NCBI GenBank assembly: GCA_944322825.1
Contig: CALUQD010000001.1
Span: forward strand, 80,015 to 122,504
DNA from: Candidatus Avelusimicrobium pullicaecorum
GTDB lineage: Bacteria; Elusimicrobiota; Elusimicrobia; Elusimicrobiales; Elusimicrobiaceae
DNA: 42,490 nucleotides
Direction of reading: 5' to 3'
Shown here: positions 1,918 to 26,845 of the stretch, piece by piece
How the letters are laid out: every line of letters begins with the position of its first letter
Position numbering within the stretch: position 1 is the stretch's first letter
The notes under the pieces: generated by a model
What the model was told of the DNA's origin: nothing
The model's input: only the letters and a program-made list of their open reading frames with translations
Databases searched by the model: none
Position numbers and translations under genes: made by a program

Positions 1918-3003
1918 TTACCTGATTTTTAAGGACGCCAACGCCAACAGCATCAACATTGCGCCCACAATCCAAAACCGTACAATTACTTTCGGTTCCG
2001 GCACGCCCAACAATTCAAAATGGTGGTGAATGGGCGCCATTTTAAAAAGCCGTTTGCCGTGCGTCAGTTTAAAGTATCCCATTTGCAGCATTACGGAGAG
2101 TGTTTCCAATACAAAAATACCGCCCGCAATCGGCAGCAACAGTTCTTGCTTGACGCATAAAGCCGCCGTGCCGATTACACCGCCTAAAAACAGCGAGCTC
2201 GTATCGCCCATAAACACCTGGGCGGGATAGGCGTTAAACCACAAGAACCCCGCACACGCCCCAATCAGCGCGCCCATAAAGACGGTAATTTCCCCCGCCC
2301 CCGGCACATAGATGATTTTTAAGTAATCGGCAAAATTGACGTTTCCCGCCAGATACGCCACAATCGCATATGTAGCCGCCGTAAACACCATACACCCGCT
2401 GGCCAGACCATCCAGGCCGTCCGTCAGGTTCGTGGCGTTGGAGGAACCGACGATGACCAACATCGCAAACGCAAAATAAAACACCGATAAATCGATAAAC
2501 ATCTTGCTCATATACGGGATAATCAGCGAGGTGGCATACTCCCCGTTGGGCGGGTTCATCGCCAAATACCCTACCACCACGATAGCGGTAAACAGTTGGA
2601 TGGCCAGCTTGATGGAGGATTTCATCCCTTCCGGGTTCTTTTTTACCAACTTGGTATAGTCGTCCATTACGCCGGCAATTCCCAACGTAACCGTGGTAAA
2701 CAGCAACAGCCAAATATAATTGCTGTCCCACCGGGCCCACAGCAGTACGCTTAGCACCAGGCTGACAAAAATCAACAGCCCCCCCATCGTAGGCGTTCCG
2801 CTTTTGGATAAATGGGAGGCCGGGCCGTATTCGCGTTCAATCTGCTGGATTTTGTAGGAACGCAATTTGGCCACCACTTTCGGCCCAATGAGCAGCGTCA
2901 GCAAAAACGACGTTACAATCGCCGCGCCGGTGCGGAAGGTGATGTAGCTAAAGATGTTTAGGAAGCTGAAATCATTCGTAAACAGCGAGAGGTAATATAA
3001 CAT
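1918..3003 (-). CDS. mraY: MraY, phospho-MurNAc-pentapeptide translocase
   Basis: Integral membrane enzyme that joins UDP-MurNAc-pentapeptide to undecaprenyl phosphate to make lipid I. It is 361 aa, the usual length. Motifs in order: GTPTMGG (69-75), DDYTKL with the aspartate pair at 114-115, NLTDGLDGLASG (192-203), FMGDTSS (264-270) and PIHHHFELLG starting at residue 324. These hold the conserved acidic and histidine residues around the Mg2+ site. An AAGGAG-type ribosome site overlaps the end of murF, whose stop is 5 nt upstream. Confidence 0.97.
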   Translation of the reverse strand: MLYYLSLFTNDFSFLNIFSYITFRTGAAIVTSFLLTLLIGPKVVAKLRSYKIQQIEREYGPASHLSKSGTPTMGGLLIFVSLVLSVLLWARWDSNYIWLLLFTTVTLGIAGVMDDYTKLVKKNPEGMKSSIKLAIQLFTAIVVVGYLAMNPPNGEYATSLIIPYMSKMFIDLSVFYFAFAMLVIVGSSNATNLTDGLDGLASGCMVFTAATYAIVAYLAGNVNFADYLKIIYVPGAGEITVFMGALIGACAGFLWFNAYPAQVFMGDTSSLFLGGVIGTAALCVKQELLLPIAGGIFVLETLSVMLQMGYFKLTHGKRLFKMAPIHHHFELLGVPEPKVIVRFWIVGAMLMLLALASLKIR

Positions 3004-3008
3004 TTTGT

Positions 3009-4352
3009 CTAAATCTCCTTGAGGATATTTTCAAAATTCATCGAGCGCGACGCTTTGACCAAGCACGTGCCGCCTTTTTTAAGGACGGCGGAAAGATCTT
3101 TCGTCCAGCCCGCCGGAGTAGGAGCATAAAACGCTTTTACGCCGGGCGCCGCCTTTAATTTTTCGTAGGCGTATTTCATCTCCGGTCCGGCCAAAAAAGC
3201 ATATTCCACGCCGTTATCCAACACTTGGCGCGCCACCAGCCGGTGGTATTCTTTGGATGAATCACCCAATTCCTTCATATCGCCCAGCACCGCCACGCGC
3301 GGTTTGGAAATTTCGCGTCCTAAAATTTCCAATGCGTTTTGCATACTGGCTGGATTGGCGTTGTAGCAATCCAAAATAAATTCCACGCCCTTTTGATGCA
3401 TCCGCTCCAAGCGCATCGGCATAGGCGTATAGTTTAGGAATCCTTTTTTGACGTTATCCATATACAGCCCCAGCGCAATGGCCGCCGCGGCCGCCGCGGC
3501 CGCGTTTAGCTTGTCGTGGTGTTCCAGTTTCAGGTCCAGCATATACGCTTCGCCTTTGTAGGTAAAGGAAAATTTTTCCGTTTCCAAAATCTGCAAGTCC
3601 GCCCCCGGGTGAAACCCGAACGAAATGCGTTTGCCTTTAAATTCCGTATTCAAACGGCACAGCATTTTATCATCGGCATTATACACCAGCGTTCCGCCGA
3701 AATTAAGGCATTTGGCGATTTCGGTTTTGGTTTTATAAACGGTTTCCAAATCGTGGAAAAATTCCAAGTGCGCGGCCGATACGTTGGTAATTACCGCCAC
3801 GTCCGGCACCGCCAGAGAAGCGGTTTCTTCGATATCGCCGGGGTGAGAAGCCCCCAGCTCAAAAATGCCGTATTTGTGCTTGGGCTGGATTTCCAACAGC
3901 GAAAACGGCACCCCAAATTGGTTGTTAAAATTGCCCATATTGGCCGTCGTTTCGCCGGCCGTTTCGCAAATGGCGCGCAGCATTTGTTTGGTGGTGCTTT
4001 TGCCGTTGGAACCGGTGATGGCGGCCACCTTCAGCGTGCTGTTGACGCGGTGGTATTTTGCCAACGCCTGTAAGGCTTTTAACGAATCGTCCACCAGCAG
4101 GAAGGACGCGTCCGCATTTTTAGGAAGTTCAAACCCTTTTTCCGCCAATACGACGGCTGCGCCTTTTTTCAGTACATCGGGGATAAACTGGCGCGCATCG
4201 TGGTTTTTGCCTTTTAACGCAATAAACGCATCGCCGGGGCGGATAACGCGGGAATCCGTAACAAAAGAAGTCACCTTTGTTTTGGGAGCGGAGGAAATCA
4301 GTTCCGCACCGGTAATTTTCGCTATTTTGCTGAGGGTTAAATCAAGTTTCAT
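3009..4352 (-). CDS. murF: MurF, UDP-MurNAc-tripeptide:D-Ala-D-Ala ligase
   Basis: Cytoplasmic ATP-dependent Mur ligase that adds D-Ala-D-Ala to the UDP-MurNAc tripeptide. It is 447 aa. The P-loop reads TGSNGKST (113-120). FNNQFGVPFSLLE, and NPASMQNALEIL in the C-terminal region, are MurF-type rather than MurE-type sequences. A run of eight alanines (about 282-289) is encoded by an unusually GC-rich stretch near 3485-3505. Strong SD AAGGAG lies 5 nt before the ATG. It follows ftsI directly; murE, usually found there, is missing from this cluster. Confidence 0.93.
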   Translation of the reverse strand: MKLDLTLSKIAKITGAELISSAPKTKVTSFVTDSRVIRPGDAFIALKGKNHDARQFIPDVLKKGAAVVLAEKGFELPKNADASFLLVDDSLKALQALAKYHRVNSTLKVAAITGSNGKSTTKQMLRAICETAGETTANMGNFNNQFGVPFSLLEIQPKHKYGIFELGASHPGDIEETASLAVPDVAVITNVSAAHLEFFHDLETVYKTKTEIAKCLNFGGTLVYNADDKMLCRLNTEFKGKRISFGFHPGADLQILETEKFSFTYKGEAYMLDLKLEHHDKLNAAAAAAAAIALGLYMDNVKKGFLNYTPMPMRLERMHQKGVEFILDCYNANPASMQNALEILGREISKPRVAVLGDMKELGDSSKEYHRLVARQVLDNGVEYAFLAGPEMKYAYEKLKAAPGVKAFYAPTPAGWTKDLSAVLKKGGTCLVKASRSMNFENILKEI

Positions 4353-21934: not shown

Positions 21935-22822
21935 ATGAAAAACGGTATGAATTTTCAGGATATGATATCCGCCCTAAACACCTATTGGACTAAACAAGGC
22001 TGCGTCCTCGTTCAGCCCTACGACGTTGAAAAAGGCGCCGGCACCTATAACCCGGAAACCTTTTTCGGCTCTTTAACCAAAAAACCCGTCAAACGCGCGT
22101 ATGTGGAACCGTGCCGCCGACCGGCCGACGGCCGCTACGGCGAAAACCCCAACCGCCTGGGCAAATACTATCAGTATCAAGTGATTATGAAACCCGCCCC
22201 GGCCAACATCCAAGAAATTTACTTAAATTCCTTAAAAGCCATCGGCCTGGACCCCAAACAGCACGACGTGCGCTGGATTGAGGACGATTGGCAATCCCCC
22301 ACCTTGGGCGCGTCAGGCGTCGGTTGGGAAATTTGGCTCGACGGTATGGAAATCACGCAGTTTACGTATTTCCAAAATATGGCCGGCTATGCGTTAAACC
22401 CCATTACGGTGGAAATCACCTACGGGCTGGAACGCATTGCAATGTACTGCCAAAAAGTGGATAACGTGTTTGACATCCGCTGGAACGACGAAATCACCTA
22501 CCGCGACGTACACCACGAAGGCGAACGGCAGTTTTCGCATTATTATTTTGAAGAATCCAACGTGGACCACCTGCGCCGCTACATCCAGGAATGCGAAGAA
22601 GAATGCTTCGCCCTGTGCAAAAAAGGCCTGTATTTGCCGGCGTACGACAACGCGATGAAACTGTCGCATTACTTTAATATGCTCGAAGCGCGCGGGGCGA
22701 TTTCCGTGTCAGACCGCACCAACAACATCACCAAAATCCGCAATTTGGCCAAAGCCTGCGCCAAAACATATGTGGAAAGCGTGGAAGGAAACGAAGCTAA
22801 AAACGAGGAGGCCGCCCAATGA
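21935..22822 (+). CDS. glyQ: Glycyl-tRNA synthetase alpha subunit
   Basis: 295 aa from the ATG at 21935; an ATG four codons later ([14 protein letters not shown]) is also possible. It is the catalytic subunit of the bacterial alpha2beta2 enzyme that charges tRNA-Gly. Characteristic segments: [27 protein letters not shown]-like [35 protein letters not shown], and the glycine-binding region around YGLERIAMY. It overlaps glyS by 4 nt (ATGA). Confidence 0.97.
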
Positions 22823-24897
22823 ACGCGTTATTGGAAATTGGCGTAGAACATTTGCCCGCCCGCTTTATGGCGCCGGCCTTAAAGCAGCTTAAAGAATTAA
22901 CCGCCCAACTATTGGACGAAAAAAGAATTTCGTATAAATCGGTGGACTCTTTTGGCACATACCGCCGCCTGGTGGTCGTTATTGAAGACTTAGCCGAAAA
23001 ATCGGCCGATGTGCAAAAAGAAGTCAAAGGGCCGCCGGCTAAACTGTTAAAAGACGCCAATGGCAATTTTACCCCCCAAAGCGCGGGTTTTGCCCAAAAG
23101 AACGGAATTGCACCGGAAAAGCTGACCATTGTAGAAACGGAAAAAGGACCGTTTATTTATGCGGTGGTCAAAATCAAAGGCGAAAAGACGGTTAAACTCC
23201 TGCCGGAGATTTTCACGCGCATCGTAACCGGGCTGGAATTTGCCAAAAATATGATTTGGGAAGAATCCGGCCTGCGCTACGGCCGCCCGATACGCTCCTT
23301 GATTGGCCTGTACGGCGAAAAAGTGATTAAATTCTCCGTAGCCGGAGTGGAATCCAACCGCAACACGTATCCGCTTTCTTCTTTCGGCCGCAAACCGATT
23401 AAAGTGGCCAAGGCCGACAAAACCTGCTATGCCGATTTGCTCCGCTCCCAGCCGCAGCCTGTTTTGGCCCTGCCGCAGGAACGCAAAGAGGCTTTAATCA
23501 AAACCGTTTCCAACGAGGCTAAAATCCGCGGGTATCAAGCGGATTTAGACCCGGAATTAATCGAAGAAACCGTCTGGTTTACCGAACACCCGGTGGCCGT
23601 CGGGGGCGATTTTGAAATCAAATTTTTAACCCTCCCCAAAGACTTGGTGACGACGGTGCTTAAAAAACAAATTAAAATGTTCCCCGTCACTAACGCCAAC
23701 GGCGAATTGCAGCCGTACTTTATCGCCGTGCGGGACGGTATTTCCGTCAACCAAAACGAAGTGCGCGACGGATTTAAAAAAGTAATGTCCGCCCGCCTTT
23801 CAGACGCGGTGTTCTTCTTTGAAAACGACAAGAAAGACGGTCTGGAAAAATTCAAAGAAAAACTCAAAAATGTGCAATTTTTGGAAGGACTGGGTTCGAT
23901 GTACGACAAATCGCTTCGCACCCAGCAATTGGCCAACTGGCTGTGCGAAAAGCTGCACAAAGCGGCTGTAAAAGATACGGTGGATTATGCGGCCTCCCAC
24001 GCGTATGCCGACTTGGCCAGCCACGTCGTGTACGAGTTCCCGGAGCTGCAAGGCTATATGGGCGGCCAGTACGCCGCCTTGGAAGGCCGCGCGGACGCCG
24101 CCAAAGCAATGGAAGAATTTTACTTCCCGCTGACGTCCTCCTCCGAACTCCCCTCCACCGAAGAAGGGTGTATTGTTTCGCTGGCGGGCAAAATAGACAC
24201 GTTGGTAGGCAACTTTTTAATCGGGCAAATTCCCACCGGAAGCGAAGACCCCTTCGCCTTGCGCCGCCAGGCGTTTGGCGCGGTGCGCATCTTGCTGGAA
24301 AAGGAAATGAATGTATCGCTGAAAGACTTGGTGGAAAAGGCGGCCTCTCTATACCCCGCCGGTACGCCGGATAAGGGCCTAAAAGAACTGCCGGGCTTTT
24401 TGTTCCAGCGGCTGGCCTTGGTATTGGAACAGCGCGGGCACAAAGCCGCCACGTTAAACGCCGTGGCCAATTGGTACGAAATGCCGCTTACACAGGTGGA
24501 AGCCTTGGTCAGCGCGTTGGAAACCGTCAAAATGGGCGAAGATTTTGCCCAAATGTTGGAACCGGCCAAACGCGTGTGCAACCTCCTCAAAAAAGCCGAA
24601 GACGTAACGGAGGATGTAAACGAAAGCCTGTTCGAACTGCCGGCCGAAAAAGCCTTGTACGATAAAATCCACGAAGTCGATGCTTCGCTGGGGTGCACCG
24701 TACATACGGCCCAAACGAAAGAAGGGTATTTAAACATTCTTAAAACCTACGGCGCATTCAAAGAACCGCTGGAAAATTTCTTTAAGGATGTGATGGTAAA
24801 CGCCGAGAACCCCGCCGTGCGGAAAAACCGCCTAGCCCTCTTGGCGCGCGTACGCCGCTATCTGACGCAAACCGTGGCGGATATCACCCAGCTGTAA
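22819..24897 (+). CDS. glyS: Glycyl-tRNA synthetase beta subunit
   Basis: 692 aa, normal for GlyS. N-terminus [20 protein letters not shown] and [14 protein letters not shown], then [14 protein letters not shown], an HD-like region, and a C-terminal anticodon-binding domain ending in [16 protein letters not shown]. It binds tRNA-Gly and is needed for activity of the alpha subunit. Followed 20 nt later by a strong terminator. Confidence 0.97.
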
Positions 24898-24994: not shown

Positions 24995-25022
24995 TTGACA
25001 ATTTTTTTAATCCGCCTATACT
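24995..25022 (+). promoter_or_regulatory. Strong promoter of a candidate non-coding RNA
   Basis: Perfect -35 TTGACA (24995-25000), 16-nt A/T-rich spacer and -10 TATACT (25017-25022). It is the best match to the housekeeping consensus in the window. A run of A/T lies upstream. No reading frame with SD follows. Confidence 0.8.
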
Positions 25023-25028
25023 ATCCAT

Positions 25029-25511
25029 ACAGGAAGTTAGTCCGTAGGCCCTTGCCGGGGGCTGCTTGTAAGCGGACAAAAGCGGTGACGTGAGGTAGTG
25101 TTGCTGTTGTTGTAAAGGTGCCGAGCCGGAAGATGTAGGCGTACGTGCTAGGGAAGGTTAGGATGGTTAGGTTACGTAACTGTCCGGGAACCGGTAAGGC
25201 GTATAGCCAGGCGTATCTGGCCGCGGACGGGCAGGGCGATAAGTGTTGTACCGTCTGGTTGTTAGGGCGCCGACGCGGAGTTGTAAAGCGGTGTAGTGCG
25301 GCGGAAAGGTAATGGAAGTCGTGCTAGTTCGTGGTAACGGTGTTTCCGGCGGTTGATGTAATTGCTTCGGCCGGGTGGAAACAGTAAGCGGCATAAGTCC
25401 CGGTGAGATGTAGTTGGGCCTATCCTGAGAGCAGTAGATGACGCAGTGAGGAGTAAGAATGGAGACGTCAAGATGAACCCCTCGGTTTGGATAACCGGGG
25501 GGTTCTATTTT
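25029..25511 (+). ncRNA. Candidate large structured non-coding RNA, about 480 nt
   Basis: Bounded by a strong promoter and a strong intrinsic terminator, with no credible coding frame. The sense strand is G-rich and C-poor (25081-25180 has 40 G and 12 C by my count). Helices seen by eye: GTCCG 25040-25044 with CGGAC 25073-25077, enclosing GGCCC 25047-25051 with GGGCT 25059-25063; GTCCG 25182-25186 with CGGAC 25224-25228, enclosing GCCAG 25206-25210 with CTGGC 25217-25221; GTTTCC 25342-25347 with GGAAAC 25377-25382, enclosing GGC/GCC. GTTACGTAAC (25171-25180) is self-complementary. GGCGTAT and GGTTAG each occur twice. I could not match it to RNase P RNA, tmRNA, 6S or SRP RNA. Confidence 0.6.
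25475..25511 (+). terminator. Terminator of the candidate ncRNA
   Basis: GAACCCC-T-CGGTT (25475-25487) pairs with AACCG-G-GGGGTTC (25493-25505) over a 5-nt loop, then TATTTT. About 13 pairs including one G-U. Confidence 0.88.
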
Positions 25512-25584: not shown

Positions 25585-25935
25585 TTATTCCAATACGCTG
25601 GGCGGCGGGAGAAGCCCCGTTTCGGACGGAGAGCTTTGCGCGGAAGCTTCGCCGGAGGCGTTTTCGGTTTCTTCGTCCTGCAGGGGCGTTAAAATCATTT
25701 CTTCGTAGCTTTCATCCGGCAGGGCGGTGGAAATGGTTTCTTCCTGCGGGATAAACGTTTCCTCCTGCGCCGGGGCCGCCACGGTGATATTGCCGGCGGA
25801 CGGCGTTTGCACCGGCCGTGCCGAAGAACTGCCGGAAGAATAGGCATTGCTGGGGTTCCACCACGCGGGCGGATTGCCGGCACACGCGGCCGAGAGCAAC
25901 CCCAACGCCAAGAAAAGGAATAGATTCTTCTTCAT
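25585..25935 (-). CDS. Small lipoprotein of unknown function
   Basis: 116 aa. MKKNLFLFLALGLLSAAC is a lipoprotein signal peptide with the lipobox LSAAC and lipidated Cys18. The mature part is of low complexity, Ser/Pro/Glu-rich, acidic, with ETFIPQEETIS and EDEE-type patches and no cysteine; probably disordered. It starts in the gap after lipA and its promoter overlaps the lipA 3' end. Nothing in the sequence indicates a specific role. Confidence 0.7.
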   Translation of the reverse strand: MKKNLFLFLALGLLSAACAGNPPAWWNPSNAYSSGSSSARPVQTPSAGNITVAAPAQEETFIPQEETISTALPDESYEEMILTPLQDEETENASGEASAQSSPSETGLLPPPSVLE

Positions 25936-25941
25936 ACTTTT

Positions 25942-25972
25942 ATTATACCAATATCGCGCTTTAATTAGTCAA
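25942..25972 (-). promoter_or_regulatory. Promoter of the small lipoprotein gene
   Basis: TTGACT (25967-25972), 19-nt spacer, TGG plus TATAAT (25942-25947), an extended -10. The -35 lies inside the end of lipA. The -10 ends 6 nt before the ATG, leaving no room for an SD. Confidence 0.65.
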
Positions 25973-26845
25973 TACGGCTTTGCGGTAAAGGGCGCCCGCG
26001 CGGTAGCTGCTGCGCACCAGCGGGCCGCTGGCAACGCCCTTAAAACCCAAGGAAAGGGCTTCTTGCTCCCAGGCCTGGTATTCTTCGGGCTGAGGGTAGC
26101 GCGCCACCGGGTAATGCGCGGCGGACGGCGCCAGATATTGGCCGATGGTCAGCAAATCCACCCCCACCGCCCGCAAATCTTTTAGTAAAGCGGTAATCTG
26201 TTGAGAGGTTTCCCCCAGGCCTACCATAAAACCGGTTTTGGTTAAAACATTCGGCGCCAATTTTTTGGAACGCTCCAACAGGGTTAACGTGCGCTGATAA
26301 TCCGCCCCCACCCGCACCGCCGAATACAGCTGCGGCACCGTTTCCACATTATGCGCCAGCACATCCGGGCGGGCGGATAAAACGGTTTTTAAAGCGGCTT
26401 CGTCGCCGCGCAAATCGGAAATCAGCGGTTCCACCTTCACTTCGGGCGTAAGGGCGTGGATGGCGTCAATCACGCGGGCAAAATGGGCGGCGCCGCCGTC
26501 TTGTAAATCATCGCGGGTGGGCATTGTCAATACGGCGTAGCGAATACCCCACTCTTTTACAGCCTGCGCCACGCGGGCGGGCTCGTTTTCATCGGGCGGC
26601 AAAGGGCGCGCTTTGGTCACCGCGCAAAACCGGCAGCCGCGCGTACAAATATCGCCCAGCACCATAAACGTCGCGTCGCCGCAGTTAAAACATTCCCCGC
26701 GGTTGGGGCAGCGGGCCGCGTGACAAACGGTATGCAGGGTAAATTTATTAATAGACTGCTGTGCGTGCAGCGCCGCCGAGGAACGCAAGGCCGCTTTGTT
26801 GCGGCCCACTAAATCTTTTAGCCATTGGGGGATAGGTGTAGTCAT
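25961..26845 (-). CDS. lipA: LipA, lipoyl synthase
   Basis: 294 aa radical-SAM enzyme that inserts two sulfurs into octanoyl groups on lipoyl domains. Both FeS sites are complete: auxiliary cluster Cys41, 46, 52 (CX4CX5C) and radical-SAM cluster Cys67, 71, 74 in CTRGCRFC. ATFMVLGD, TRDDLQDGGAAHFARVI and a C-terminal segment with GLxSGPLVRSSYRA-like sequence (GVASGPLVRSSYRA) complete the family pattern. lipB is not adjacent. The ATG follows a TATAAT by 7 nt with no SD. Confidence 0.96.
   Translation of the reverse strand: MTTPIPQWLKDLVGRNKAALRSSAALHAQQSINKFTLHTVCHAARCPNRGECFNCGDATFMVLGDICTRGCRFCAVTKARPLPPDENEPARVAQAVKEWGIRYAVLTMPTRDDLQDGGAAHFARVIDAIHALTPEVKVEPLISDLRGDEAALKTVLSARPDVLAHNVETVPQLYSAVRVGADYQRTLTLLERSKKLAPNVLTKTGFMVGLGETSQQITALLKDLRAVGVDLLTIGQYLAPSAAHYPVARYPQPEEYQAWEQEALSLGFKGVASGPLVRSSYRAGALYRKAVLTN

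What the first reader, a model, noticed from the sequence alone, without database searches (positions are those of the whole stretch)
24995..25511. Candidate novel large non-coding RNA between glyS and a lipoprotein gene
A near-consensus promoter (TTGACA-16-TATACT) is followed by about 480 nt without a usable reading frame and then a 13-pair intrinsic terminator. The strand is strongly G-rich and C-poor, unlike flanking genes, and several local helices can be drawn, some nested (for example GTTTCC/GGAAAC at 25342/25377 and two GTCCG/CGGAC closures). I could not find the conserved cores of RNase P RNA (GAGGAAAGTCC, ACAGA...GGCUUA), tmRNA (T-loop plus alanine acceptor), SRP RNA or 6S RNA. Its size and promoter strength recall abundant structured RNAs such as OLE, ROOL or GOLLD, but no homology is claimed.
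Basis: partly seen in the sequence, partly recalled or inferred. Interest (0 to 1): 0.8.

Follow-up and report, generated by a model that had tools for sequence, protein, structure and literature searches.

The report
Structured RNA ending in five-codon gene
A genus of gut bacteria carries a new, strongly folded RNA of about 480 bases that ends in its own ribosome-binding site and a five-codon mini-gene, and a second RNA in the same genomes is built the same way, which suggests an undescribed kind of RNA that works by engaging ribosomes.

Summary
In detail: a near-consensus promoter (24995-25022), a G-rich, C-poor transcript without any long reading frame, and a 13-pair terminator (25475-25505). 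Rfam has no match; RNase P RNA and tmRNA lie elsewhere in the genome. Orthologues sit between glyS and lipoprotein/lipA, one strong copy in about 56 of 66 genomes of this Elusimicrobiaceae gut genus, with none convincing elsewhere in the phylum. The fold is supported by covariation: 26 pairs changed on both sides against 8.9 in shuffles. The codons differ widely between species (36 distinct 12-mers, all three stop codons), yet 54 of 56 copies keep five codons. Natural reductions to about 195 nt keep the closing stem, the core hairpin and the mini-gene. A second RNA family of the genus, re-found with a model that excludes the mini-gene, has the same plan with six or five codons (MEESTR in this genome). 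Best reading: a new class of structured RNA that engages ribosomes through its own minigene. Structure and minigene are well supported; transcription, translation and function are untested.

The parts
24995..25022 (+). sigma-70 type promoter, TTGACA-16-TATACT
   Evidence: conserved in all 11 close homologues and in nearly all distant ones
25029..25511 (+). structured RNA (family 1); start inferred from the promoter, end from the T run
   Evidence: alignment A2, covariation
25044..25051 (+). 5' strand of the long-range closing stem, GTAGGCCC
   Evidence: a stem at the same place with different sequence in classes D/E
25342..25382 (+). core hairpin with the invariant motif GGTTGAT...TG-N-TTCGG (25351-25370)
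   Evidence: invariant across classes; kept in the 195-nt forms
25416..25423 (+). 3' strand of the closing stem, GGGCCTAT
25448..25453 (+). Shine-Dalgarno sequence GAGGAG, 5 nt before ATG
25459..25476 (+). five-codon minigene ATG GAG ACG TCA AGA TGA (METSR)
   Evidence: 54 of 56 family-1 copies have exactly five codons, with TGA, TAA or TAG stops
25475..25511 (+). intrinsic terminator; stem starts inside the stop codon
22819..24897 (+). glyS, conserved upstream neighbour
25585..25935 (-). small lipoprotein gene, conserved convergent neighbour
25961..26845 (-). lipA, conserved next neighbour

Best explanation
The locus makes a stand-alone structured RNA of about 480 nt, the first described member of a new RNA class of one Elusimicrobiaceae genus. 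Shown by comparison: a closing stem and a covarying branched domain with an invariant GGUUGAU...UUCGG hairpin; then, outside the closed domain, a Shine-Dalgarno sequence, an AUG, five codons, a stop, and a terminator stem that begins in the stop codon. A second RNA family of the genus has the same plan with six or five codons. Inferred: the mini-frame is translated, and the act of translation rather than the peptide is what matters. A ribosome initiating there fits between the folded domain on its exit side and the terminator hairpin on its entry side, because the hairpin begins 16-18 nt after the A of AUG, about where the footprint of an initiating ribosome ends. The RNA would thus dock its folded domain next to the 30S platform, hold the ribosome briefly while the hairpin is opened, and release it after five codons. 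I think it acts in trans as a ribosome-engaging regulator or scaffold RNA.
For: Covariation in family 1 (26 doubly changed pairs, shuffles 8.9, 0 of 500) and in family 2 (26 of 52 pairs). Minigene of five codons in 54 of 56 genomes with 36 distinct interiors and all three stops; shuffled tails have such a frame in 1.2-1.4% of cases. Family 2 re-found with a model without minigene or terminator, and a 5-6-codon frame lies downstream of nearly every hit. Reduced forms of about 195 nt keep closing stem, core hairpin and minigene. Initiation region more open than the rest (0.66 versus 0.34 unpaired). Residue choice is largely explained by base composition, which speaks for the act of translation rather than the peptide.
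Against: No transcript, ribosome or protein data. Openness of the initiation region is only slightly above controls. T is depleted at codon position 2, which could mean selection on the peptide. In L095/L097 a small hairpin encloses the start codon, and some of the weakest family-2 members lack an obvious Shine-Dalgarno sequence. Family-1 members found with model R1 are partly ascertained by their 3' end. No partner protein or target is known.
Confidence: 0.38

Rival explanations
1. The folded domain is an independent non-coding RNA, and the minigene only serves its production or stability: a ribosome at the 3' end keeps nucleases or Rho away or ensures clean termination, as the two-codon minigene of axe-txe is proposed to protect its mRNA.
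For: Minigenes that protect in cis are proposed (PMC8708949). The strand is C-poor, which would suit an RNA that avoids Rho (own knowledge). The minigene abuts the terminator.
Against: A terminator hairpin alone usually protects a 3' end. Two different RNA families keep fixed but different lengths (five and six codons), which plain protection would not need. The 195-nt forms lose most of the domain but keep the minigene.
Confidence: 0.27
2. Dual-function RNA whose peptide product is active, for example a hydrophilic 5-6-residue signal or effector (METSR, MEESTR), with the folded domain controlling its translation.
For: Peptides of both families are hydrophilic and resemble each other (METSR with MEESTR in the same genome). 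T depletion at codon position 2.
Against: Peptides differ strongly between species (MKHHS, MTEQQ, MTPSN, MHSCK). Hydrophilicity is mostly what the A-rich composition gives (0.18 versus 0.23 expected hydrophobic, p 0.025 without correction for relatedness). No export signal fits in five residues.
Confidence: 0.2
3. Cis-acting leader: a sensor domain and leader peptide control read-through of the terminator into a downstream gene.
For: A minigene directly before a terminator resembles attenuators.
Against: The genes downstream point the other way (lipoprotein, lipA convergent) in nearly all genomes, and the arrangement changes in a few divergent ones.
Confidence: 0.05
4. A strongly diverged known housekeeping RNA (SRP RNA, 6S, RNase P RNA or tmRNA).
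For: Neither SRP RNA model finds a hit in this genus.
Against: RNase P RNA and tmRNA are elsewhere in the same genome. SRP RNA models are silent in other genera of the order too, whereas this RNA is confined to one genus. A permissive scan of the locus lists none of these families.
Confidence: 0.03

Closest known systems
Large ornate bacterial RNAs: OLE, ROOL, GOLLD (PMC12286853) and the raiA motif/ModT (PMC11706538)
   Same: Stand-alone, large, strongly structured bacterial RNAs with covarying helices and their own transcription unit
   Different: No sequence match in Rfam; confined to one genus; length varies 195-520 nt; ends in a minigene, which I do not know from those RNAs
Dual-function regulatory RNAs, for example VcdRP with a 29-aa protein (PMC8672173)
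   Same: One transcript with an RNA part and a small frame
   Different: Five or six codons instead of a small protein; no known base-pairing target; peptide sequence poorly conserved
Minigenes, for example the two-codon frame of axe-txe (PMC8708949)
   Same: Very short translated frame whose translation rather than product matters
   Different: That minigene acts on the mRNA of a following gene; here no gene follows and the minigene ends the transcript
tmRNA
   Same: Structured RNA that contains a very short frame and meets ribosomes
   Different: The frame has its own Shine-Dalgarno and start; the genome has a separate tmRNA and the locus does not match the tmRNA model

Membership tests
Any Rfam 15 family (OLE, ROOL, GOLLD, raiA, 6S, SRP and others) | Score above the family's gathering threshold | tested here: not met
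   Window and divergent members: none; permissive scans of the locus and of family 2 give only matches far below threshold
RNase P RNA | Match to RF00010, normally a single copy per genome | tested here: not met
   The RF00010 copy is at G000:C18
tmRNA | Match to RF00023, tRNA-like domain and tag frame | tested here: not met
   The RF00023 copy is at G000:C27
SRP RNA | Match to RF00169 or RF01854 | tested here: not met
   No match here; models silent in the whole order, so they may miss the true gene
Ornate homo-oligomeric RNA (ROOL/GOLLD/OLE-like behaviour) | RNA-only multimer | not testable with these tools
   Needs purified RNA
Structured RNA gene (general) | Conserved base pairs with compensatory changes above controls | tested here: met
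Dual-function RNA | Conserved translated frame | tested here: inconclusive
   Start, stop, Shine-Dalgarno and length conserved; translation itself not measured
Dual-function RNA | Functional peptide with conserved sequence | tested here: not met
   Peptides diverge between species; residue choice follows composition
Riboswitch or attenuator leader | Co-directional downstream gene under control | tested here: not met
   Downstream genes are convergent in most genomes

The most novel reading that the evidence does not exclude
A new kind of bacterial RNA: a large folded domain that delivers itself to ribosomes by carrying, at its 3' end, a ribosome-binding site and a minigene whose fixed length is set by the ribosome footprint, so that the RNA acts in trans as a translation regulator or scaffold. 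At least two such RNAs exist in one genus.
Probability: 0.35. Interest if true: 0.9.

Novelty: categorically new. Interest (0 to 1): 0.74.

Why it matters
Large structured bacterial RNAs are few, and most have no known function. Here two families of one genus share a plan that points to a working partner, the ribosome, and so makes a direct test possible (toeprint, ribosome profiling, start-codon mutation). The natural series from about 500 nt down to about 195 nt shows which parts are indispensable. If the minigene is a docking device, it would be a mode of RNA action for which I found no description, and the rule (folded domain, Shine-Dalgarno, 4-8 codons, abutting terminator) could be searched for in other bacteria, where such RNAs would be listed as non-coding.

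Tried and rejected
Known RNA families: Rfam at gathering and permissive thresholds for the window, divergent members and family 2: none. RNase P RNA and tmRNA: present elsewhere. SRP RNA replacement: dropped because SRP models are silent in other genera of the order as well while this RNA is confined to one genus. A longer protein frame: not conserved in close relatives, sense or antisense. Weak model hits outside the genus (G118, G129, G134, G139, G141): terminators after coding genes. Phage origin: no hit in viral contigs, and synteny is fixed. Attenuator: gene orientation. Selection on the peptide: mostly explained by composition. Further RNAs of this plan in three genomes by a pattern with a strong Shine-Dalgarno: none beyond family 1, and the reversed control pattern gives more hits; family 2 has a weaker Shine-Dalgarno and escapes that pattern. 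My first alignments ignored strand and were discarded. One helix in the structure string (helix 15, the terminator) was entered one column off; its counts should be ignored. Literature searches found no description; the library holds open-licence papers only.

Full report
CHECK OF THE OBSERVATION. Between glyS (22819-24897, +) and a convergent small lipoprotein gene (25585-25935, -) the window holds TTGACA-16-TATACT (24995-25022) and a 13-pair terminator (25475-25505) with a T run. The stretch between is 37.5% G and 17.4% C and has no long frame. As RNA it folds at -186 kcal/mol, better than all 100 dinucleotide shuffles (z -3.8). Rfam gives nothing at the curated thresholds for the whole window except a tRNA elsewhere. 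At permissive thresholds it gives only sub-threshold matches, most of them around the two terminators.

WHERE IT OCCURS. A DNA search of 101 genomes found 11 copies aligned over the full length (own included) and about 20 partial ones, all convincing ones in the same genus. The 11 align from the -35 box to the T run. A covariance model of the 3' third (R1) over 341 Elusimicrobiota genomes finds one strong copy in about 56 of 66 genomes of the genus (E about 1e-8 to 1e-41). The weak hits outside the genus are terminators behind coding genes. The locus is fixed: glyS, RNA, then convergent lipoprotein and lipA, even where the RNA shares little more than the core motif. In a few divergent genomes the lipoprotein gene lies upstream instead. 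In other genera of the family the region behind glyS shows no such RNA, including G118, a single contig of 1,643,562 bases that I take from memory to be Elusimicrobium minutum. A scan of about 85,000 species genomes with one form of the core motif gave 16 hits. Those with informative titles are uncultured Elusimicrobiales or Elusimicrobiaceae (one from sheep colon); the others are titled only as uncultured bacteria, and the contig lengths of several equal those of genomes of this genus. Viral contigs gave none.

STRUCTURE. In the 11 close homologues a fold with a long-range closing stem (25044-25051 with 25416-25423), a branched interior and a core hairpin has 26 pairs with changes on both sides. 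Shuffles give 8.9 on average, 0 of 500 reach the observed value, and slid controls give 1 to 5 (the overall 92.6% of cells paired is an underestimate, because I entered the terminator helix one column off). Fourteen more distant members (classes D/E) have a different sequence but again a closing stem at the same place, a core hairpin and 19 doubly changed pairs. The invariant motif is GGUUGAU...UG-N-UUCG in the core hairpin. Two genomes (L095, L097) carry reduced forms of about 195 nt that keep only the closing stem, one long hairpin, the core hairpin and the 3' end described next.

Immediately before the terminator lies GAGGAG-N5-ATG GAG ACG TCA AGA TGA (25448-25476): a Shine-Dalgarno sequence and a frame of exactly five codons whose stop codon forms the foot of the terminator stem. 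Of 56 genomes with a family-1 copy, 54 have exactly five codons; the other two have four and eight. There are 36 distinct 12-base interiors, for example METSR, METSN, MDTAR, MKEST, MKHHS, MTEQQ, MVSTK, MRSHT, MTPSN and MHSCK. Stops are TGA, TAA and TAG. The start is always ATG, usually with a Shine-Dalgarno sequence 5-7 nt upstream. The distance between core and terminator varies from 104 to 133 nt, while the frame does not vary. Shuffled tails have such a frame in 1.2% of cases. The initiation region is predicted to be more open than the rest (0.66 versus 0.34 unpaired; control tails 0.56-0.60, so this is weak support). Codon position 2 is poor in T, but the hydrophilic residues are largely what the A-rich composition gives (hydrophobic fraction 0.18 versus 0.23 expected). 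The act of translation is therefore more likely to be under selection than the peptide.

A SECOND FAMILY WITH THE SAME PLAN. Weak R1 hits (L102, L105, L107, L115, L117, L118, L121) turned out to be another RNA of about 390-435 nt at a different locus, with its own promoter, a different covarying fold (26 of 52 pairs changed on both sides), no Rfam match, and again a minigene at the terminator: MEESTR, MEQSTN, MEESTK, MAETK, MNQTK, MDDKAN. The window's own genome has it at G000:C15, about 2,930-3,341 on the minus strand, with MEESTR. To avoid circularity I built a model (R2) from the interior only, without minigene or terminator. It finds one copy in 45 of 66 genomes of the genus and in none of 275 other Elusimicrobiota. 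Downstream of nearly every hit, the weakest included, a short frame of mostly 5-6 codons ends at a terminator (MEKAIS, MKKAIS, MKKAK, MKRAT, MEKEK, MNECT, MIEST, MPEQK). Some of these weakest ones lack an obvious Shine-Dalgarno sequence, and one strong hit (G030) shows no such frame in the stretch examined. Whether the two families are distant paralogues is open.

INTERPRETATION. Shown by comparison: two single-copy, genus-limited structured RNAs with conserved promoters, terminators and minigenes of nearly fixed length. Inferred: they are transcribed as such (promoters, terminators); the minigenes are translated (start, Shine-Dalgarno, variable codons, alternative stops, fixed length); translation docks the RNA on a ribosome. 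Geometry fits docking: the terminator stem begins 16-18 nt from the A of AUG, about where the footprint of an initiating ribosome ends (own knowledge), so five codons would be about the shortest frame that lets a ribosome initiate without first opening the hairpin. The folded domain would then sit at the mRNA exit side. I put 0.9 on a real new structured RNA class, about 0.85 on translation of the minigene, and 0.38 on the docking mechanism. Rivals are a protective minigene for an otherwise independent RNA (0.27) and a functional peptide (0.2). A leader for a downstream gene is disfavoured by gene orientation.

RELATION TO KNOWN SYSTEMS. By size and degree of structure it recalls OLE, ROOL, GOLLD (PMC12286853) and raiA/ModT (PMC11706538), without sequence match. 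By content it recalls dual-function RNAs such as VcdRP with 29 aa (PMC8672173) and minigenes such as the two-codon frame of axe-txe, which acts in cis, possibly by protecting the mRNA (PMC8708949). RNase P RNA and tmRNA are excluded because both are elsewhere in the genome. SRP RNA models are silent in the other genera of the order that were searched too, so a role as SRP RNA cannot be formally excluded, but the confinement to one genus speaks against it. I found no paper that describes these RNAs.

LIMITS. No transcript or ribosome data were available. The sequences are mostly metagenome-assembled. Model R1 contained the minigene region, so family-1 counts for divergent members are partly ascertained; R2 does not have this flaw. 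Counts are not corrected for relatedness. Literature coverage is limited to open-licence papers.

Noticed in passing
G000:C15, about 2930-3341, minus strand (L181:1099-1511): Second structured RNA family with a 5-6-codon minigene in the same genome (MEESTR), next to a gene for a predicted phage-repressor-like regulator and a convergent ABC transporter gene.
   Followed up: yes
whole genomes of the order: Neither Rfam SRP RNA model finds a convincing SRP RNA in this genus or in the other genera of the order searched, although most control genomes ring; the SRP RNA of this order may be strongly diverged.
   Followed up: partly
L095 and L097 (G027, G003): In the reduced 195-nt forms the start codon of the minigene sits in the loop of a small hairpin GGCGU(A)AUGACGCC that also covers part of the Shine-Dalgarno sequence.
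   Followed up: no
window 25585-25935 (-): Small lipoprotein with a constant N-terminal AGNPPAWWNPS and C-terminal PSVLE, conserved next to the RNA but in either orientation.
   Followed up: no
minigene pairs of the same genome: The last residue of the two minigenes often agrees within a genome (METSR with MEESTR, METSN with MEESTN), with exceptions; may only reflect common descent.
   Followed up: no
minigene codons 3-5 (window 25465-25470; class D and family-2 loci): Six-base palindromes recur inside the minigene (GACGTC in class A, GTCGAC in class D and in family 2) but are absent in other classes; could allow dimer contacts or be chance.
   Followed up: no
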